Below, in pieces: positions 58,327 through 64,000 of a stretch of DNA of 64,000 nucleotides (positions are counted from its first letter, which is position 1; each line of letters begins with the position of its first letter). Source of the DNA: Gilliamella bombicola (GTDB lineage: Bacteria; Pseudomonadota; Gammaproteobacteria; Enterobacterales; Orbaceae); contig NZ_FMAQ01000002.1 in NCBI RefSeq assembly GCF_900094945.1, forward strand, positions 123,231 through 187,230, read 5' to 3'. The position numbers and the translations under genes were made by a program. A model generated the notes under the pieces. The model saw nothing but the letters and a program-made list of their open reading frames with translations. It was not told the DNA's origin and searched no databases.

Positions 58327-61122
58327 TTAGTTTTTAATATAATCAGCCGCTTTTTTACCTGCTTGCATACCAAATATAATAATATCGGCGACAGCATTGC
58401 CACCAATACGATTAGCCCCATGAACACCACCTACAACTTCGCCGGCAGCAAATACACCTTGAATCACATGTTTATCAGTATTCAACACTTGTGTTTGGGT
58501 ATTAATAGTGACCCCTCCCATCGTGTGGTGCACACCTGGTGCGATTTTTATTGCATAAAAAGGCCCTTTTTTGATCGGATGGCGCATGCCTGTTATTCTG
58601 CCAAAGTCTTGGTCATGCTTAGTTGACGTAAACTGATTGTAACGTTCAACCGTTTTAACTAATGCGTCGCCATCAATCGATAGCTTTTGTGCTAATTCTT
58701 CAAGAGTATTTGCTTGAATAACAAGCTCGTTTGCAACATACTCTTCAACGGCTCTGTTTTCATCACGAACCTGCTGATCAAACAAAATATAAGCATAATG
58801 TTCAGGTAATTTAATAATTTCAGCTGATACTTTATCCCTTGTATCAAGTTCATTAACAAATCGTTGACCTTTTTTCGATACCAGAATCGCTCCACCACCA
58901 CGGATGGATTCAGAAATTAAATAAGACGTTGTCTGTTCAACCGTTGGATGGATTTGAATTTCACTCATATCAACGGTTCCTGCACCCAATGTTTCTAATA
59001 TCACAATTCCAGAACCCGTTGCACCCTTATGATTAGTGGTCACAAATCCTTTAAGGTCAGGACGATATTTTTCAACCATTGCGGTATTGGCACTAAACCC
59101 ACCAGTTGCAATAATAACTGCCTTAGCTTTTATTAAATGGATCGAACCGTCTTCTTCTGAAACTTTAACCCCTGTCACTTTATGATGCTCGGTGACAATT
59201 TTAGTCACAGCAGTATCAAGTATAACTTCAATACCTCGTTTATTAATATTTTTAACTAGACCACTAATTAAGAAACCACCAACAGCAGCACCACTTTCTG
59301 GTCGATGAGTCCGATCAATGCTCATTCCCCCCGTTGTAGTAATCCCACTAAGTTCAATGTCATTATCATCTAACCAATTAATCGCATCTGGTGCATTTTC
59401 AACAAAATAACGAAGTAAATCAGGATTATTTTTGTTTTTACCTCCGGTCATGGTTTCTTGATAAAATAGATCTTTACTATCAACAATCCCTTTTCGTTTT
59501 TGGAATTTGGTTTCAGCCGCATTCATACCCGCTGAGGCTTTATTAGTATTACCACCTATTACAGACATTTGTTCAACAATAACGACACTTGCACCAAGAT
59601 CATGAGCTTGAATCGCAGCAGTAAGCCCTGCTCCACCACTACCAACGACCACAACATCAAAAGCTCGATCATTAGGATCACCACCTTCGGCAATAATCGC
59701 TTCTTTATTAGATCTTGCCATCGCTTTGGTTACGGCTTTTTTAAACGCTTCACATTGTGTTGTTGCGCCAGAAATTGCATCAACATGTGAGCTATTTGAG
59801 TCAATAATCCTATGTTTAATTTCAGCAAAATTATCCAAAACTTCATTATCAAAATTTTGGGCATTAATTAATTGCATATCTTTTATAAAATCTTTACCTA
59901 GCTCAACATTAATTAAAAACTCATAAGCCTCATCATTAACTTTTTCTTGATAATGACCAGGTTTGAATTTTTTTACATTAAGATTCACATCACGAATCAA
60001 ACTCTCGACAAGAGAAAAGCGCCATAAAGGTTCTGGAATATTAAGTGTTTCACGCTTATCACTATTAATAAATAATTCTAATTTCTCCCCCTTTTCAATA
60101 CGGTCAACCCAATCAGGATAAGCAATACAAGCACGTCCTACAGCAACTAAATCATAACCATGCTCAATCGCATCATCCACATCACTTTGATTAACTACAT
60201 TACCAACACCTACAACGGGAATTTTTGCTAATGTTGCAGAACGCATTGTCACATATTTTTTAATTAATGGAGTCGGATCTTGTGTATCAACAATTGATGG
60301 TCTAAGCGTATCGCCCATTGAAAAATGAATATAATCAAGTCCTTTTGCAGCCAATTTTTCAAGCAAATACATTGTGTCATCAAAACGAATTCCTGGAACT
60401 TCTAATTCTTCAGGAGAAAAACGGTATCCAACAATAAATTTAGATATTGCATATTGCTTAACCATATTGTGGGTAATATCTAAAACAGCAAGCGCGAATC
60501 GCGTACGATTATCACGGTTCCCTCCCCATTTATCATTTCTTTGATTTGAATTAGGTGAATAAAATTGCTGAATTAAATAAGTATTAGCGCCATGAATCTC
60601 TACACCATCAAAGCCAGCTTGAATCGCTCGACGTACAGCTTGACCAAACTTATCAATCATGTCGTCTACTTCTGCCGCTGTTAATTCAATTGGAGTGGGG
60701 GCATTTGGACGTGGGGCCGCAATAGCGCTAGGTCCAACTGGCGATTGGCCTCCGATAAGTTTAGGCTCCACCATTCTTCCACCATGATAAACTTGAATAA
60801 CCGCTTTCGAACCCTTTTCTTTGATGGCTTGCGCTATTTTTGCTAACCCTTCAATCTTATCATCACTATTTAAACCAATAGCACCAGGAAATGCTAACCC
60901 TTTATTATCAACAAATCCACATTCGACAATAATGGTGCCAATTGATCCTGATCTTGCTCGATAATATTCAATCAAGTCATGCGTAACAGAACCATCATAA
61001 AAACCAGAACAAGTTGTCATTGGTGCCATCATTATGCGATTTTTAAGTTCAACACCATTAGGCAAAGTTAATGGCTTAAAAATATTTTCATTTCTCATTT
61101 TTTCATACCTAACCATTATCAT
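58327..61122 (-). CDS. Three-domain NADH:fumarate-reductase-like flavoprotein (OYE - FMN_bind - FAD_binding_2)
   Basis: The 931-residue protein joins an N-terminal OYE-type NAD(P)H:flavin oxidoreductase domain (about 10-375: MAPMTTCSGFYDG, EIHGANTYLIQQF, VGVGNVVNQSD, AVGRACIAYPDW), an FMN_bind domain (about 380-475) with VDAISGATT, where Thr454 is the probable covalent FMN site, and a flavocytochrome-c-type fumarate reductase domain (about 485-930: VVVGSGGAGLTAAIQAHDLG, HHTMGGVTIN, GVHGANRIGGNAVAD). There is no signal peptide. The layout matches the cytoplasmic NADH:fumarate reductase described from Klebsiella and the related Vibrio acrylate reductase. Two starts are possible (61122 or 61098). 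Confidence 0.88.
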   Translation of the reverse strand: MIMVRYEKMRNENIFKPLTLPNGVELKNRIMMAPMTTCSGFYDGSVTHDLIEYYRARSGSIGTIIVECGFVDNKGLAFPGAIGLNSDDKIEGLAKIAQAIKEKGSKAVIQVYHGGRMVEPKLIGGQSPVGPSAIAAPRPNAPTPIELTAAEVDDMIDKFGQAVRRAIQAGFDGVEIHGANTYLIQQFYSPNSNQRNDKWGGNRDNRTRFALAVLDITHNMVKQYAISKFIVGYRFSPEELEVPGIRFDDTMYLLEKLAAKGLDYIHFSMGDTLRPSIVDTQDPTPLIKKYVTMRSATLAKIPVVGVGNVVNQSDVDDAIEHGYDLVAVGRACIAYPDWVDRIEKGEKLELFINSDKRETLNIPEPLWRFSLVESLIRDVNLNVKKFKPGHYQEKVNDEAYEFLINVELGKDFIKDMQLINAQNFDNEVLDNFAEIKHRIIDSNSSHVDAISGATTQCEAFKKAVTKAMARSNKEAIIAEGGDPNDRAFDVVVVGSGGAGLTAAIQAHDLGASVVIVEQMSVIGGNTNKASAGMNAAETKFQKRKGIVDSKDLFYQETMTGGKNKNNPDLLRYFVENAPDAINWLDDNDIELSGITTTGGMSIDRTHRPESGAAVGGFLISGLVKNINKRGIEVILDTAVTKIVTEHHKVTGVKVSEEDGSIHLIKAKAVIIATGGFSANTAMVEKYRPDLKGFVTTNHKGATGSGIVILETLGAGTVDMSEIQIHPTVEQTTSYLISESIRGGGAILVSKKGQRFVNELDTRDKVSAEIIKLPEHYAYILFDQQVRDENRAVEEYVANELVIQANTLEELAQKLSIDGDALVKTVERYNQFTSTKHDQDFGRITGMRHPIKKGPFYAIKIAPGVHHTMGGVTINTQTQVLNTDKHVIQGVFAAGEVVGGVHGANRIGGNAVADIIIFGMQAGKKAADYIKN

Positions 61123-61200
61123 TTAATCTTTATAGTTATCAACGATGATAACATTACCAATAGTCATTCTCCACTTAGATTAGTTTCATTAGTATTGAGT

Positions 61201-61216
61201 AATGATAAGTATCATT
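61201..61216 (-). promoter_or_regulatory. Candidate FNR-like site upstream of the flavoprotein gene
   Basis: AATGATAAGTATCATT is a perfect 7-2-7 inverted repeat and contains ATGAT-N4-ATCAT, one base per half away from the FNR consensus TTGAT-N4-ATCAA. It lies 80-100 bp upstream of the flavoprotein start. I did not find a strong -10 at the ideal distance, so activation is only suggested. Confidence 0.4.
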
Positions 61217-61395
61217 TTTTCGACATAAATTTTTTAGTTTTATTAATCAATTAGAAAATTATTGATATTAATAAAATAAGATTTTACCGATTTTTGATAT
61301 TTTATCGTTTTTAAAGTATCGGATATATCATTAAAAATCTAAAAAAAAACACTGTAACTTTTTCATTTAGTTATATTTTTTTTGTAATTTTTATG

Positions 61396-61423
61396 TTGAA
61401 CTTTAAATTTATTGAGATAGAAT
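61396..61423 (+). promoter_or_regulatory. Sigma-70 promoter of the leader ORF and dihydroorotate-dehydrogenase-like gene
   Basis: TTGAAC (61396-61401), a 16-bp spacer and TAGAAT (61418-61423) predict transcription from about 61430, giving a leader of about 200 nt before the ATG at 61632. Confidence 0.55.
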
Positions 61424-61455
61424 ACCTCGAAATATAAGGCAAAGAGAACATCGTA

Positions 61456-61623
61456 ATGTTTGTAATACTAGCTAACAGATTAAGATCAACTTTCGATTTT
61501 CTATTTATCCTATTTTTAATCCTCCTTCATGGAGGATTTTTTTTTGGTTTAAAAAAACTTTTTTATTTCTATTTTCATTGCAAGGTTAATAATCAATTCT
61601 ACGTTGAGAACACGTACAGTTAG
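61456..61623 (+). CDS. Leader ORF upstream of the dihydroorotate-dehydrogenase-like gene
   Basis: A 55-codon ORF starts MFVILANRLRSTFDFLFILF, is rich in Phe, Leu and Ile, passes through the whole attenuator hairpin and ends with TAG at 61621-61623, inside the GGAGG Shine-Dalgarno of the next gene. AAGAGAA lies about nine bases before its ATG. An uninterrupted ORF across a hairpin and T-run is the plan of the pyrBI leader of E. coli. I infer a leader peptide whose translation controls termination and may also couple to the next gene. It has no detectable protein family. Confidence 0.6.
   Translation: MFVILANRLRSTFDFLFILFLILLHGGFFFGLKKLFYFYFHCKVNNQFYVENTYS
61515..61546 (+). terminator. Attenuator in the dihydroorotate-dehydrogenase-like gene leader
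   Basis: AATCCTCC (61518-61525) pairs perfectly with GGAGGATT (61531-61538) around TTCAT and runs into nine T's. A pyrimidine-rich, T-rich tract (TTTTCTATTTATCC and TATTTTT) precedes it, resembling the UTP-sensitive pause region of pyrBI. It lies inside the leader ORF and about 90 bp before the gene. Confidence 0.85.
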
Positions 61624-61631
61624 GAGGCAAT

Positions 61632-62681
61632 ATGAAATCTTTAACACCTTTTTATGATCCAAGTATAAGCTACGAAGAAAATTATGCTCAAGGACCATTT
61701 GGACTTTTTAGGCAATTAGATAAAGCACAACAAGTATCAATAAAACCTTCAAAATTTTTAAATGTTGAGGTTAATTTACCATTTGGTCAACCTGCAGGCC
61801 CACTATTAAATGCAAACTATATCAAAGCTGCTTTTGCTTATGGATTCGACTTATGTGTATATAAAACAGTAAGAACTAAACTACATAAATGCCATCCATT
61901 ACCTAATGTTTTATCAGTTCACCCTAACGGTAAATTATCGTGTAACTTAGATACGGTATTAGCTGATACCAATTACAGCCAACCATTATCAATAACTAAC
62001 TCTTTTGGCGTTCCTTCTTTTGCTCCAGATGTCTGGCAACCTGATATGGCTGATGCCGTCAAATCAGCAGGGCATGGTCAATGTGTTATTGGTAGTTTTC
62101 AAGGTACACAAGGTAACGGTGAAATTGAAAAAGATTATGCTTTAGCAGCAAAATTAGTTCGGGAAACCAATGCACCTATTCTTGAGGCAAATTTAAGCTG
62201 CCCGAATGAAGGGGCTAGTAAATTACTTTGCTTTGATATTGATAAAGTTGAACGAATTGTTAATGAAATTAAAATGGCTGTTCCCGATCGTCCACTTATT
62301 TTAAAACTAGCTTATTTTGCTGATGATGAAAAAATTATATCATTACTCAATCGAGTAGGATCCATTATTGATGGTTTAAGTACTATTAACACGTTATCTG
62401 CAAAACCAGTTGATGCTCATGGTCATCCTGCATTAGGCGAAAATAGAAAAGAAGGTGGAGTTTGTGGTGATGCAATCCGTTGGGCTGGTTTAGATATGGT
62501 GAGCCGTTTAGCTAAATATCGTCAGGAAATGGATCTAAAATTTGCTATTGTAGGCGTTGGTGGTGTTAGTTCTAGTGAACATTATCATCAATTTATAAAA
62601 AGTGGTGCTGATGCGGTTATGAGTGCAACTGGTGCTATGTGGAATCCGCTCCTTGCGATAGAAATCAAAAAGAATCTTTAA
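61632..62681 (+). CDS. Class 1 dihydroorotate dehydrogenase-like protein
   Basis: The 349-residue protein is an FMN TIM-barrel of the dihydroorotate dehydrogenase/oxidase group. It shows GQPAGPLLNANYI and TVRTK near the N-terminus, ITNSFGVPS, EANLSCPNEG (Cys of the class 1 catalytic loop; class 2 has Ser), LKLAYF and VGVGGVSSSEHYHQFIKSGADAV with a phosphate-binding loop. No N-terminal membrane helix as in class 2 PyrD. TAGGAGG lies five bases before the start. The leader ORF and attenuator suggest pyrimidine-dependent control. It could use a substrate other than dihydroorotate. Confidence 0.82.
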   Translation: MKSLTPFYDPSISYEENYAQGPFGLFRQLDKAQQVSIKPSKFLNVEVNLPFGQPAGPLLNANYIKAAFAYGFDLCVYKTVRTKLHKCHPLPNVLSVHPNGKLSCNLDTVLADTNYSQPLSITNSFGVPSFAPDVWQPDMADAVKSAGHGQCVIGSFQGTQGNGEIEKDYALAAKLVRETNAPILEANLSCPNEGASKLLCFDIDKVERIVNEIKMAVPDRPLILKLAYFADDEKIISLLNRVGSIIDGLSTINTLSAKPVDAHGHPALGENRKEGGVCGDAIRWAGLDMVSRLAKYRQEMDLKFAIVGVGGVSSSEHYHQFIKSGADAVMSATGAMWNPLLAIEIKKNL

Positions 62682-62700
62682 TTTGATAAATATTTCTAGT

Positions 62701-62724
62701 ATAGGGCACTATGCCCTGTTTTTT
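62701..62724 (+). terminator. Terminator after the dihydroorotate-dehydrogenase-like gene
   Basis: AGGGCA (62703-62708) pairs with TGCCCT (62712-62717) around a 3-nt loop and is followed by GTTTTTTATTT. Confidence 0.85.
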
Positions 62725-62926
62725 ATTTAAAATAATCAGGAATAGTTTAACAATAAAATTATAACCAATACTCATATTTGCTTAGTAGCACAGAAATAAA
62801 GAACGCTCAAGATTCTTACTAGCATAGGAAATGAATTATCAGAAAACACCACAAACAGATAAAAAAAGTATTGCAATAAAAAAACACTTCCATGAGGTGA
62901 TTTAATCTATTGATATTCTTAAAGAA
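62725..62926. other. Spacer before a tRNA fragment; no gene seen
   Basis: AT-rich sequence with no credible ORF on either strand. It ends at the tRNA-Asp 3' fragment that marks the change from core genes to polysaccharide-type genes. Confidence 0.6.
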
Positions 62927-62976
62927 TTGGCAGAACGGACGGGGCTCGAACCCGCGACCCCCTGCGTGACAGGCAG
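62927..62976 (-). pseudogene. 3' half of a tRNA-Asp(GTC), likely island att site
   Basis: On the minus strand the sequence from the anticodon stem to CCA is intact (CCTGCCTGTCACGCAGG, then GGTTCGAGCCCCG and TGCCA), but the 5' half is missing; beyond 62976 the sequence is unrelated. A tRNA 3' fragment is the usual scar at the distal end of a tRNA-integrated island. The intact tRNA-Asp would be outside the window, at the other end of an element that extends to the right. Confidence 0.85.
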
Positions 62977-63217
62977 GACGCTAAAAAGTAATTTTATTTA
63001 AAAACAAAGCGTTGCACCTCTTGCGATATTTAATTGTGACGCAATATAAAGTAATTTAAATTCATATAAAGCATGGTGTTGACACAAATATGCCACAGCG
63101 TCAAAACTGTAGCATTGTCGATTTTGTGATGCTACATGATGCTGTTGAATATTGTAAGTTTAAGATTGATAGTGTGTTTGTTAATATTCCAATCATCTAA
63201 TTGAATCGAGTGGCGCT
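62977..63217. other. Spacer upstream of the acyltransferase gene; no gene seen
   Basis: AT-rich with GTAGCATTGTCG and ATGCTACATGATGCTG segments near 63110-63145, but no credible ORF. It is the start of the sequence beyond the tRNA-Asp scar and presumably contains the promoter for the following cluster. Confidence 0.5.
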
Positions 63218-63769
63218 ATGAAATATATACATATAATTAAATTTTTAATGACTCATGATTTGACTTTTCTTAAAGAGTGTTGGCGCGTTGAATTTTTAAA
63301 AAAATCAAAATTTAGCTGGAAACATTTATTAAAAAAATTAATAGAAAAAGAAAACACATATATTGCGTGGTGGCGATTAGCTAGTGAAATGGCAAAATAT
63401 GGAAATAAAAAGCAAAAAATAAATAAATATTTAATAGTGCGATACGCTGTAGAAATAGGATTAGAAAAGACTTTTATTGATGTAGGATTCTCTATTACGC
63501 ATTATTCATCAATAGTTTTTTATGACAACATAAGAGCAGGTAAAAACCTAAGCATACGACAAAATACAACTATAGGCAGTAAAGATGAGGGGGCGTGCTT
63601 TATTTTGGGGGATAATGTTACTATTGGCGCTAATGTCTGTATATTAGGTGGAAAAATAAAAATAGGAAATAATGTCGTGATTGGTGCAATGTCATTTGTA
63701 AATAAAGATATTCCAGATAATTGCACTGTTTATACGCAAAAAACAAATGCAATTATCCAGAATAGTTAA
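63218..63769 (+). CDS. Hexapeptide-repeat acetyltransferase (serine O-acetyltransferase-like)
   Basis: The 183-residue protein has an N-terminal helical part (about 1-90) and a left-handed beta helix of hexapeptide repeats (about 100-170: IGSKDEGACFILGDNVTIGANV, then GKIKIGNNVVIGAMSFV), ending with the typical P-x-N cap. It resembles CysE-like acyltransferases found in O-antigen and capsule clusters more than housekeeping CysE, which is longer. The catalytic His is replaced or shifted in the ITHYSS segment. Very AT-rich codon use and its place after the tRNA scar point to a horizontally acquired polysaccharide locus. Confidence 0.7.
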   Translation: MKYIHIIKFLMTHDLTFLKECWRVEFLKKSKFSWKHLLKKLIEKENTYIAWWRLASEMAKYGNKKQKINKYLIVRYAVEIGLEKTFIDVGFSITHYSSIVFYDNIRAGKNLSIRQNTTIGSKDEGACFILGDNVTIGANVCILGGKIKIGNNVVIGAMSFVNKDIPDNCTVYTQKTNAIIQNS

Positions 63770-63826
63770 TTGCCTGTTAACTCAATCACTTAAGAAGTAT
63801 TAATAAAATAGCAAAGAGAAAATAAA

Positions 63827-64000
63827 ATGGGATTTAGATGTTGGCTGTACAATAAAACAGGGATAAATTTGTACAAATCAAAAAACAAAGATAAAAAATT
63901 TAACCAATTTAAACGCCAATTATTTTTAATTAAATTGATTTTTGATTGGAATATAAGAAAAAAAATAAAATTAAATAAAGTAAAAAAAATACTTTTACTA
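63827..64000 (+). CDS. Partial gene, unrecognised
   Basis: An open frame starts at ATG 63827 (AAAGAGAA upstream) and runs off the window with 58 codons: MGFRCWLYNKTGINLYK followed by a very lysine- and asparagine-rich stretch and WNIRKKIKLNK. No motif is recognisable. It follows the acyltransferase by 57 bp on the same strand, so it is probably the next gene of the same polysaccharide-type cluster. Confidence 0.5.
   Translation, partial: MGFRCWLYNKTGINLYKSKNKDKKFNQFKRQLFLIKLIFDWNIRKKIKLNKVKKILLL

What the first reader, a model, noticed from the sequence alone, without database searches (positions are those of the whole stretch)
61396..61640. pyrBI-like attenuation leader in front of a class 1 dihydroorotate-dehydrogenase-like gene
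Sequence shows a promoter, a 55-codon ORF that runs uninterrupted through a perfect 8-bp hairpin with nine T's, a pyrimidine-rich tract just before the hairpin, and a stop codon overlapping the Shine-Dalgarno of the next gene. In E. coli pyrBI, UTP shortage makes polymerase pause at such tracts so the leader ribosome disrupts the hairpin. I know of that mechanism at pyrBI and pyrE, not at this gene family, so this may be an independent use of the design on a DHOD-like enzyme.
Basis: partly seen in the sequence, partly recalled or inferred. Interest (0 to 1): 0.78.

Follow-up and report, generated by a model that had tools for sequence, protein, structure and literature searches.

The report
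UTP-sensing leader on unusual pyrimidine genes
A bee-gut bacterium carries, in front of an unusual dihydroorotate-dehydrogenase-like gene, a built-in transcription stop inside a tiny reading frame, laid out like the switch E. coli uses to sense its UTP supply; the same switch sits on a partner gene, and the genomes examined that have that partner lack a recognisable first enzyme of pyrimidine synthesis.

Summary
The window lies in Gilliamella. Among 32 distinct Gilliamella upstream regions the leader frame has 0 stops in 880 codons through the hairpin; the other frames have 94/878 and 48/848. Start-to-hairpin distance changes by multiples of three in 31 of 32. The window is the exception, with a -1/+1 pair of indels. 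The peptide before the hairpin is weakly constrained (pN/pS 0.79) and no antiterminator is conserved. That fits pyrBI, not an amino-acid attenuator. UTP response is untested.

The same genome has a homologous leader before an uncharacterised amidohydrolase gene (NF005365). In Orbus, Frischella, Zophobihabitans and three MAGs one such leader precedes an amidohydrolase-DHOD-like pair, with pyrE- and pyrF-like genes following in two of the MAGs. Of 26 genomes examined, the 11 with the amidohydrolase all lack aspartate transcarbamoylase over cut-off; 14 of the 15 without it have it. So this is a new member of a known attenuator kind, marking a gene pair that appears to stand in for pyrB, pyrC and canonical pyrD in most of these genomes; its chemistry is unknown.

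The parts
61351..61376 (+). conserved element upstream of the promoter (ACTGTAACTTTTTCATTTAGTTATAT), shared with the amidohydrolase leader of the same genome
   Evidence: single match in the window, 0.01 expected; core TTTCATTTANTTA in 28 of 34 dehydrogenase-gene and 29 of 40 amidohydrolase-gene upstream regions; alignment of the two leaders
61396..61423 (+). sigma-70-like promoter TTGAAC-N16-TAGAAT
   Evidence: chance-level by itself; strict motif at this place in 25 of 32 dehydrogenase-gene leaders, 0.3 expected
61442..61448 (+). Shine-Dalgarno-like AAGAGAA of the leader ORF
   Evidence: sequence; similar purine stretches before the start in the relatives listed, not counted
61456..61623 (+). 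leader ORF, 55 codons plus TAG, runs through the hairpin
   Evidence: frame open in 32 of 32 distinct Gilliamella leaders, 0 stops in 880 codons
61490..61519 (+). T-rich tract before the hairpin, proposed UTP-dependent pause region
   Evidence: T fraction 0.56, 0.67 and 0.52 in the three 10-nt blocks before CCTCC over 32 leaders, 0.17, 0.26 and 0.18 in the three blocks before those
61518..61545 (+). intrinsic terminator: 8-bp stem, 5-nt loop, T9
   Evidence: hairpin plus T-run in 72 of 74 upstream regions, mean -10.6 kcal/mol
61622..61627 (+). Shine-Dalgarno AGGAGG of the dehydrogenase-like gene, overlapping the leader stop codon
   Evidence: sequence
61632..62681 (+). dihydroorotate-dehydrogenase-like gene, 349 aa
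   Evidence: Pfam PF01180 71.4 bits; the only PF01180 match over cut-off in its genome; AlphaFold model pLDDT 90.6, DHODH/DPD fold
62701..62719 (+). terminator-like hairpin after the gene

Best explanation
It is a ribosome-coupled, UTP-sensing transcription attenuator of the pyrBI type, in front of a divergent dihydroorotate-dehydrogenase-like gene. Transcription starts just after 61423 and a ribosome starts the leader ORF at 61456. When UTP is scarce, RNA polymerase pauses in the U-rich tract (61490-61519). The leader ribosome catches up and enters the hairpin region, the terminator (61518-61545) cannot fold, and polymerase reads into the gene. When UTP is plentiful, polymerase outruns the ribosome, the hairpin folds and transcription stops at about 61546. 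Shown by comparison: the parts, the open frame, no conserved competing hairpin, and the link to pyrimidine genes. Inferred: the start site, translation, the pause, the termination and the UTP response.
For: 32 distinct Gilliamella leaders: frame with 0 stops in 880 codons against 94/878 and 48/848 in the other frames; start-to-CCTCC distance 66, 69, 72 or 75 in 31, and 65 in the window. The window's -1 comes with T9 instead of T8 after the hairpin. 70 of 72 leaders with hairpin have an ATG frame reaching to within 12 nt of it, 13.9 expected; the two misses, L056 and L070, have GTG frames. A frame passes the whole hairpin in 32 of 32 dehydrogenase-gene and 29 of 40 amidohydrolase-gene leaders. 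T-tract next to the hairpin. Weak peptide constraint, pN/pS 0.79 over 31 leaders, part before the hairpin. Hairpin in the predicted fold of 32 of 32 and 39 of 40 leaders; 5' arm paired upstream in only 1 and 2. Same layout in E. coli pyrL and in a pyrB leader of a same-order genome, L123. Elsewhere the order is [leader]-amidohydrolase-DHOD-like-pyrE-like-pyrF. Published pyrBI logic: terminator inside the leader gene, tight coupling prevents it (passages of PMC4824070 and PMC5021804).
Against: No expression or termination data. The T-tract is compositional evidence in an AT-rich genome; in the leader of L111 it is weak (sequence). In 11 of 40 amidohydrolase-gene leaders the frame ends just before the hairpin instead of passing it. 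Two of 34 dehydrogenase-gene upstream regions (G011, G004) have no hairpin; both genomes have a second DHO_dh-family gene, but so does G035, whose operon has the leader. The single-strand fold of the window leader is not unusually stable (z -1.09). In this window 3 of 11 other terminator-like hairpins also have an ATG frame reaching them. The gene's enzymatic role is unproven and its genome has no aspartate transcarbamoylase over cut-off. Leaders are related, so counts are not independent. Starts were picked among candidates open past the hairpin, which favours openness; applies one rule to real and shuffled sequence.
Confidence: 0.82

Rival explanations
1. The leader senses ribosome-polymerase coupling in general (translation rate, growth rate), not UTP in particular; the T-tract is only a by-product of an AT-rich genome.
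For: The design needs only a pause and a ribosome; no UTP measurement exists.
Against: T is concentrated just before the hairpin while the 30 nt before that are A-rich; both genes that carry the leader lie in clusters with pyrE- and pyrF-like genes in L072.
Confidence: 0.1
2. Amino-acid attenuation or an arrest peptide: the ribosome stalls at particular leader codons or by nascent-peptide sequence.
For: Leaders contain much Phe and Leu, and many Gilliamella dehydrogenase-gene leaders read N/D-P-P-L-W over the hairpin (listing, not counted).
Against: No conserved antiterminator. The terminator lies inside the ORF, whereas amino-acid attenuators keep it more than 20 bp beyond (passage of PMC4824070). 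Peptide weakly constrained. The window and L050 read the hairpin differently, and amidohydrolase leaders use other frames.
Confidence: 0.03
3. An RNA-binding protein or a metabolite-binding RNA controls the terminator, and the ORF is incidental.
For: A conserved element upstream of the promoter suggests an additional regulator, though outside the RNA.
Against: None of the 5 Rfam matches in 60500-64000 reaches its gathering score; the consensus fold of the leaders contains only the terminator stem; the open frame is kept far beyond chance.
Confidence: 0.03
4. A plain terminator or fixed-level attenuator with a fortuitous frame.
For: In this window 3 of 11 other terminator-like hairpins also have an ATG frame reaching them.
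Against: 70 of 72 against 13.9 expected; 0 stops in 880 codons and indels in threes.
Confidence: 0.02

Closest known systems
pyrBI (pyrL) attenuator of E. coli and relatives
   Same: Leader ORF (44 codons in E. coli), pyrimidine-rich tract, GC stem plus T8 inside the ORF, leader stop next to the start of the first gene; the E. coli pyrL pause is reported not to rely on an RNA hairpin (passages of PMC9291695).
   Different: Regulated genes are a DHOD-like gene and an NF005365 amidohydrolase gene, in genomes without recognisable pyrB. Shorter ATG-to-hairpin distance. Two homologous leaders in one genome. Stop position varies from 69 nt before to 26 nt into the gene over 32 leaders. Sequence homology with pyrL was not tested.
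rph-pyrE attenuator of E. coli (recalled)
   Same: In 11 of 40 amidohydrolase-gene leaders the frame ends just before the hairpin (for example L226 and L066, sequences), which recalls pyrE.
   Different: Here a dedicated short leader, not a full gene. Gilliamella pyrE itself follows its upstream gene (rph by recall of the sequence) with 13 nt between and no hairpin there.
Dihydroorotate dehydrogenase (PyrD classes 1A, 1B, 2)
   Same: Pfam DHO_dh; DHODH/DPD fold; N-S-C-P-N and I-N-T stretches aligned with L. lactis PyrDB.
   Different: Below the NCBIfam PyrD cut-offs; 17-20% identity in the listed structural matches to DHODH chains; class cannot be assigned.

Membership tests
pyrBI-type attenuator | Intrinsic terminator between promoter and first structural gene | tested here: met
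   72 of 74 upstream regions
pyrBI-type attenuator | Leader ORF that reaches or passes the terminator | tested here: met
   frame conservation only, translation itself not shown
pyrBI-type attenuator | Pyrimidine/U-rich tract just before the hairpin | tested here: met
   composition only, 32 leaders; weak in L111
pyrBI-type attenuator | No competing antiterminator | tested here: met
pyrBI-type attenuator | Controls a gene of pyrimidine nucleotide synthesis | tested here: inconclusive
   DHOD-like gene; clustered with pyrE- and pyrF-like genes in L072, L110 and, by reading, L111; enzyme activity unknown
pyrBI-type attenuator | Read-through rises when UTP falls; pausing at the tract | not testable with these tools
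   needs expression or in vitro transcription data
Amino-acid biosynthetic attenuator | Conserved antiterminator hairpin | tested here: not met
Amino-acid biosynthetic attenuator | Terminator beyond the leader ORF | tested here: not met
   criterion from a passage of PMC4824070
PyrD (dihydroorotate dehydrogenase) | Over a curated PyrD model cut-off | tested here: not met
   best 79 bits against 269; Pfam superfamily cut-off passed
PyrD (dihydroorotate dehydrogenase) | FMN/orotate-site residues and catalytic Cys/Ser | tested here: met
   K78, N123-S129, N187, S189-C190-P191-N192, K225, N253-T254 invariant in 35 sequences; their roles are recalled, alignment to 1ep1
PyrD (dihydroorotate dehydrogenase) | Dihydroorotate oxidation | not testable with these tools
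   -
Dihydroorotase (for the partner amidohydrolase) | Match to dihydroorotase models | tested here: not met
   NF005365 473 bits (cut-off 340, 'hypothetical protein'), next are cytosine deaminase and amidohydrolase models; no dihydroorotase model at E <= 1e-5

The most novel reading that the evidence does not exclude
The two attenuators mark a non-orthologous entry into UMP synthesis. An NF005365 amidohydrolase and a divergent DHOD-like enzyme make orotate in bacteria that have lost aspartate transcarbamoylase and dihydroorotase, either from a host- or diet-derived intermediate (carbamoyl-aspartate, dihydroorotate or another ureide) or by a reaction not yet described. Its UTP-sensing leader was copied when the operon was split, so that both halves stayed under the same control.
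Probability: 0.5. Interest if true: 0.8.

Novelty: new member of a known kind. Interest (0 to 1): 0.62.

Why it matters
The attenuator is a rare clue that ties two orphan enzymes, one of them named only 'hypothetical protein' in NCBIfam, to pyrimidine supply in bacteria that lack the textbook first steps. A 2026 review says that H. influenzae lacks three early pyrimidine enzymes and that it is unclear how it obtains pyrimidines in cerebrospinal fluid (passages of PMC13328217). [quoted passage not shown] If the pair is shown to feed orotate synthesis, a missing step becomes testable with two small genes. It also suggests a pyrBI-type leader duplicated to follow a split operon, with the reading frame but hardly the peptide kept.

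Tried and rejected
Amino-acid attenuation, arrest peptide, riboswitch or protein-bound terminator and chance frame were each considered and set aside. 'The gene is simply PyrD' was rejected as a filing because no curated PyrD cut-off is reached. An ATCase hidden as the ornithine-type carbamoyltransferase was rejected for this genome: 440 bits on the OTC model (cut-off 281), 122 on the ATCase model (cut-off 237). An attenuator between pyrE and its upstream gene in this genome: none seen in the 300 nt printed. My automatic terminator finder as a positive control on pyrB loci was insensitive: it found a hairpin before pyrB in 3 of 19 loci, with a frame reaching it in 2 of those 3; of those two only L123 was then read in full. 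As a negative control, 3 of 11 other window terminators had such a frame. The amidohydrolase model is mediocre (pLDDT 72.4) and was not used. Ten literature searches showed no title or abstract start about this leader or gene pair among the rows listed (up to 25 each, more papers matched in most); the library holds only open-licence papers. Not tested: pyrF in Gilliamella; dimeric pyrC in Schmidhempelia, Orbus, Frischella, Zophobihabitans (G035) and the MAGs; further genes under the leader beyond the exact-stem pattern; transporters.

Full report
WHAT IS THERE. The window comes from Gilliamella (the nearest named hits are Gilliamella strains). The promoter score alone is at chance level. A strict form of the motif is at this place in 25 of 32 relatives with 0.3 expected from shuffles; a loose form is in 32 of 32, with 15.0 expected. 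The exact hairpin plus T-run occurs once in the window and in none of 100 shuffles.

IS IT CONSERVED. Searching 60 related genomes with the 349-aa protein gave 49 with some match, 35 of them (34 in the genus, 1 in the family) at 69% identity or more. A scan of GTDB contigs gave 97 relatives, of which the best 80 were kept. Fifty-four Gilliamella loci with more than 80% protein identity reduce to 32 distinct upstream regions. In all 32 a leader ORF from an ATG (one GTG, L056) passes through the hairpin. From the start codon to the end of the hairpin the leader frame has 0 stops in 880 codons; the other two frames have 94 in 878 and 48 in 848, and are fully open in 0 and 4 of 32 sequences. The start was chosen among candidates open past the hairpin, which favours openness, so one rule was applied alike to real and shuffled sequence on a wider set: 70 of 72 leaders with hairpin have an ATG frame reaching to within 12 nt of it, against 13.9 expected. 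The distance from start to CCTCC is 72 (22), 66 (7), 69 (1), 75 (1) and 65 (1, the window): multiples of three in 31 of 32. The window itself has five T where close relatives such as L035 and L037 have six before the hairpin, and nine where they have eight after it. Its frame therefore slips by one within the hairpin and is restored behind it (translations). The part of the leader peptide before the hairpin is only weakly constrained (pN/pS 0.79 over 465 pairs of 31 leaders, window left out). T is 0.56, 0.67 and 0.52 in the three 10-nt blocks before CCTCC and 0.17, 0.26 and 0.18 in the three blocks before those, which are A-rich. Leaders are related by descent, so these counts are not independent trials.

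A SECOND COPY OF THE LEADER. An exact search for the stem in 40 genomes hit 22, all in the genus, with 31 matches. Ten of the 31 are not at the dehydrogenase gene, and all ten lie in front of a gene for a 337-339-aa amidohydrolase. That protein matches NCBIfam NF005365 ('hypothetical protein', 473 bits, cut-off 340); the next best models are cytosine deaminases and an amidohydrolase. A protein search finds it in 35 of 60 relatives at 59% identity or more, plus 4 weak matches. In the window's own genome it lies on another contig (G000:C26), with its own hairpin and leader frame. The two leaders of this genome align along promoter and upstream sequence as well as hairpin: score 53 against a dinucleotide-shuffle maximum of 23, and without the hairpin half 31 against 19, in 500 shuffles each (with plain shuffles). 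Taking both genes, 74 distinct upstream regions were examined (34 of the dehydrogenase gene, 40 of the amidohydrolase gene); 72 have hairpin and T-run. The two without are the dehydrogenase genes of G011 and G004. Both genomes have a second DHO_dh-family gene over cut-off (that of G011 reaches the PyrD cut-offs), but so does G035, whose operon has the leader, so the second gene does not explain the loss by itself. A frame passes the whole hairpin in 32 of 32 dehydrogenase-gene leaders and 29 of 40 amidohydrolase-gene leaders; in the other 11 it ends just before the hairpin.

THE LIKELY ANCESTRAL ARRANGEMENT. In Orbus hercynius (L063), Frischella (L066) and Zophobihabitans (L067) the amidohydrolase gene lies directly before the DHOD-like gene, with one leader in front of the pair. 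A Methylobacteriaceae MAG (L070/L302) has the same pair and a hairpin with a GTG frame. In two betaproteobacterial MAGs (L072, L111) the order is leader, amidohydrolase, DHOD-like, pyrE-like, pyrF. In L072 the pyrF model is over cut-off and pyrE just below (100.7 against 106.8 bits); in L111 both are read from sequence only. L110 has a pyrC-like gene (273 against 279 bits), DHOD-like, an aspartase/fumarase-like gene, a pyrE-like gene (133 against 150 bits) and pyrF. Of 56 non-Gilliamella loci with the DHOD-like gene, 3 have a terminator-like hairpin in the 260 nt before it, and only Schmidhempelia's is of this type; Schmidhempelia also has one before its separate amidohydrolase gene. The simplest history is a single leader before the operon, then a split in Gilliamella and Schmidhempelia with the leader copied to the second half. 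That order of events is inference.

WHICH PATHWAY. In the 60 relatives none of the 35 genomes with the close amidohydrolase has aspartate transcarbamoylase over its cut-off, while 19 of the other 25 do. In a set of 26 genomes that I chose from the loci in hand, the amidohydrolase is over cut-off in 11; none of the 11 has pyrB over cut-off, and 14 of the 15 others do, the exception being the MAG of L060. Seven of the 11 are Orbaceae (family placement of the named ones recalled), so this is about five lineages, and three of the 11 are MAGs that may be incomplete. Dimeric pyrC gives no match in the 24 Gilliamella-genus genomes tested nor in G043; among the 11 it was not tested in G035 and the six genomes reached through named loci. 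Multi-domain pyrC is over cut-off in 1 of the 11, G069; some Gilliamella and Orbus have a match just below cut-off (about 250-261 bits, frames of about 460-520 aa) that I did not identify and that could be a dihydroorotase or a relative such as a hydantoinase; G000 has none. The DHOD-like gene is the only DHO_dh-family match (E <= 1e-6) in 32 of 35 Gilliamella-genus genomes; G004 and G011 have two and the incomplete G015 none. pyrE is present in G000. carA is present, and the one carbamoyltransferase found in G000 is an ornithine enzyme. pyrF was not tested in Gilliamella. So the pair seems to replace pyrB/pyrC and the canonical pyrD here, but how dihydroorotate or orotate arises without ATCase is open. 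The amidohydrolase carries Gln where the cytosine deaminase match has Glu in an H-x-D-E stretch (alignment, conserved in the 12 sequences; that this Glu is catalytic is recalled), which argues against simple deamination. Published context: the majority of honey bee gut members lack the genetic capacity for purine or pyrimidine synthesis, and an ion annotated as orotate is among the discriminatory substrates distinguishing colonised from microbiota-depleted bees (passages and section 9 of PMC5726620).

THE ENZYME. The 349-aa protein passes Pfam DHO_dh (71.4 bits) but no NCBIfam PyrD cut-off. Thirty-five sequences, my choice from the loci in hand, keep K78, N123-S129, N187, S189-C190-P191-N192, K225 and N253-T254 invariant. 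The model (pLDDT 90.6) matches human and trypanosomatid DHODH and dihydropyrimidine dehydrogenase about equally among the 50 rows listed. A redox class cannot be assigned.

HOW IT WORKS. Best reading: a pyrBI-type attenuator. The terminator sits inside the ORF, the frame is kept but the peptide hardly, a U-rich tract precedes the hairpin, and no antiterminator is seen (5' arm paired upstream in 1 of 32 and 2 of 40 predicted folds). E. coli pyrL has the same layout, as does a pyrB leader of a same-order genome, L123. In E. coli tight coupling across the leader prevents the terminator (passages of PMC5021804); the pyrBI terminator lies within its 135-bp leader gene while amino-acid attenuators keep the terminator more than 20 bp away (passages of PMC4824070); and the pyrL pause is reported not to rely on an RNA hairpin (passages of PMC9291695). 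What is shown here is anatomy and its conservation. Transcription start, translation, pausing, termination and UTP response are inferred.

NOVELTY. No Rfam family reaches its threshold in 60500-64000. The paper searches told in Tried and rejected listed nothing on this leader or on the gene pair (PRK06886: 0 papers), within an open-licence library. I rate the leader a new member of a known kind. The gene pair it marks may be more novel than the leader.

Noticed in passing
58327-61122 (-): Divergent 931-aa protein with Oxidored_FMN, FMN_bind and FAD_binding_2 domains, like soluble NADH:fumarate-type reductases (recalled). A similar-looking protein (833 aa as far as the locus reaches) lies divergent to the DHOD-like gene in Schmidhempelia L059; possibly a redox partner of a fumarate-linked dehydrogenase.
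   Followed up: partly
61351-61376: Conserved element upstream of the promoter, shared by both leaders of the genome; may be an UP element or a regulator site.
   Followed up: partly
L110 1953-6833: pyrC-like, DHOD-like, aspartase/fumarase-like, pyrE-like, pyrF in one cluster of an unnamed bacterial MAG: a possibly fumarate-handling enzyme inside a pyrimidine cluster.
   Followed up: no
L060-L062, L064, L065, L068, L069: The DHOD-like protein is 64-71% identical between Gilliamella and unrelated bacteria of bee or insect guts (Commensalibacter, Snodgrassella, Neisseriaceae MAGs), which suggests transfer within the gut community (habitat recalled).
   Followed up: no
G004 (L298, L304-L308): Two full and several broken copies of the amidohydrolase gene in one genome.
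   Followed up: no
L293 (G043): The highest-scoring NF005365 amidohydrolase (614 bits) sits beside a metH-like gene (by reading) without the leader, in a genome with one DHO_dh-family gene, an OTC beside a carbamate-kinase-like gene (by reading), no pyrB over cut-off and no dimeric pyrC match; its lineage is not named.
   Followed up: partly
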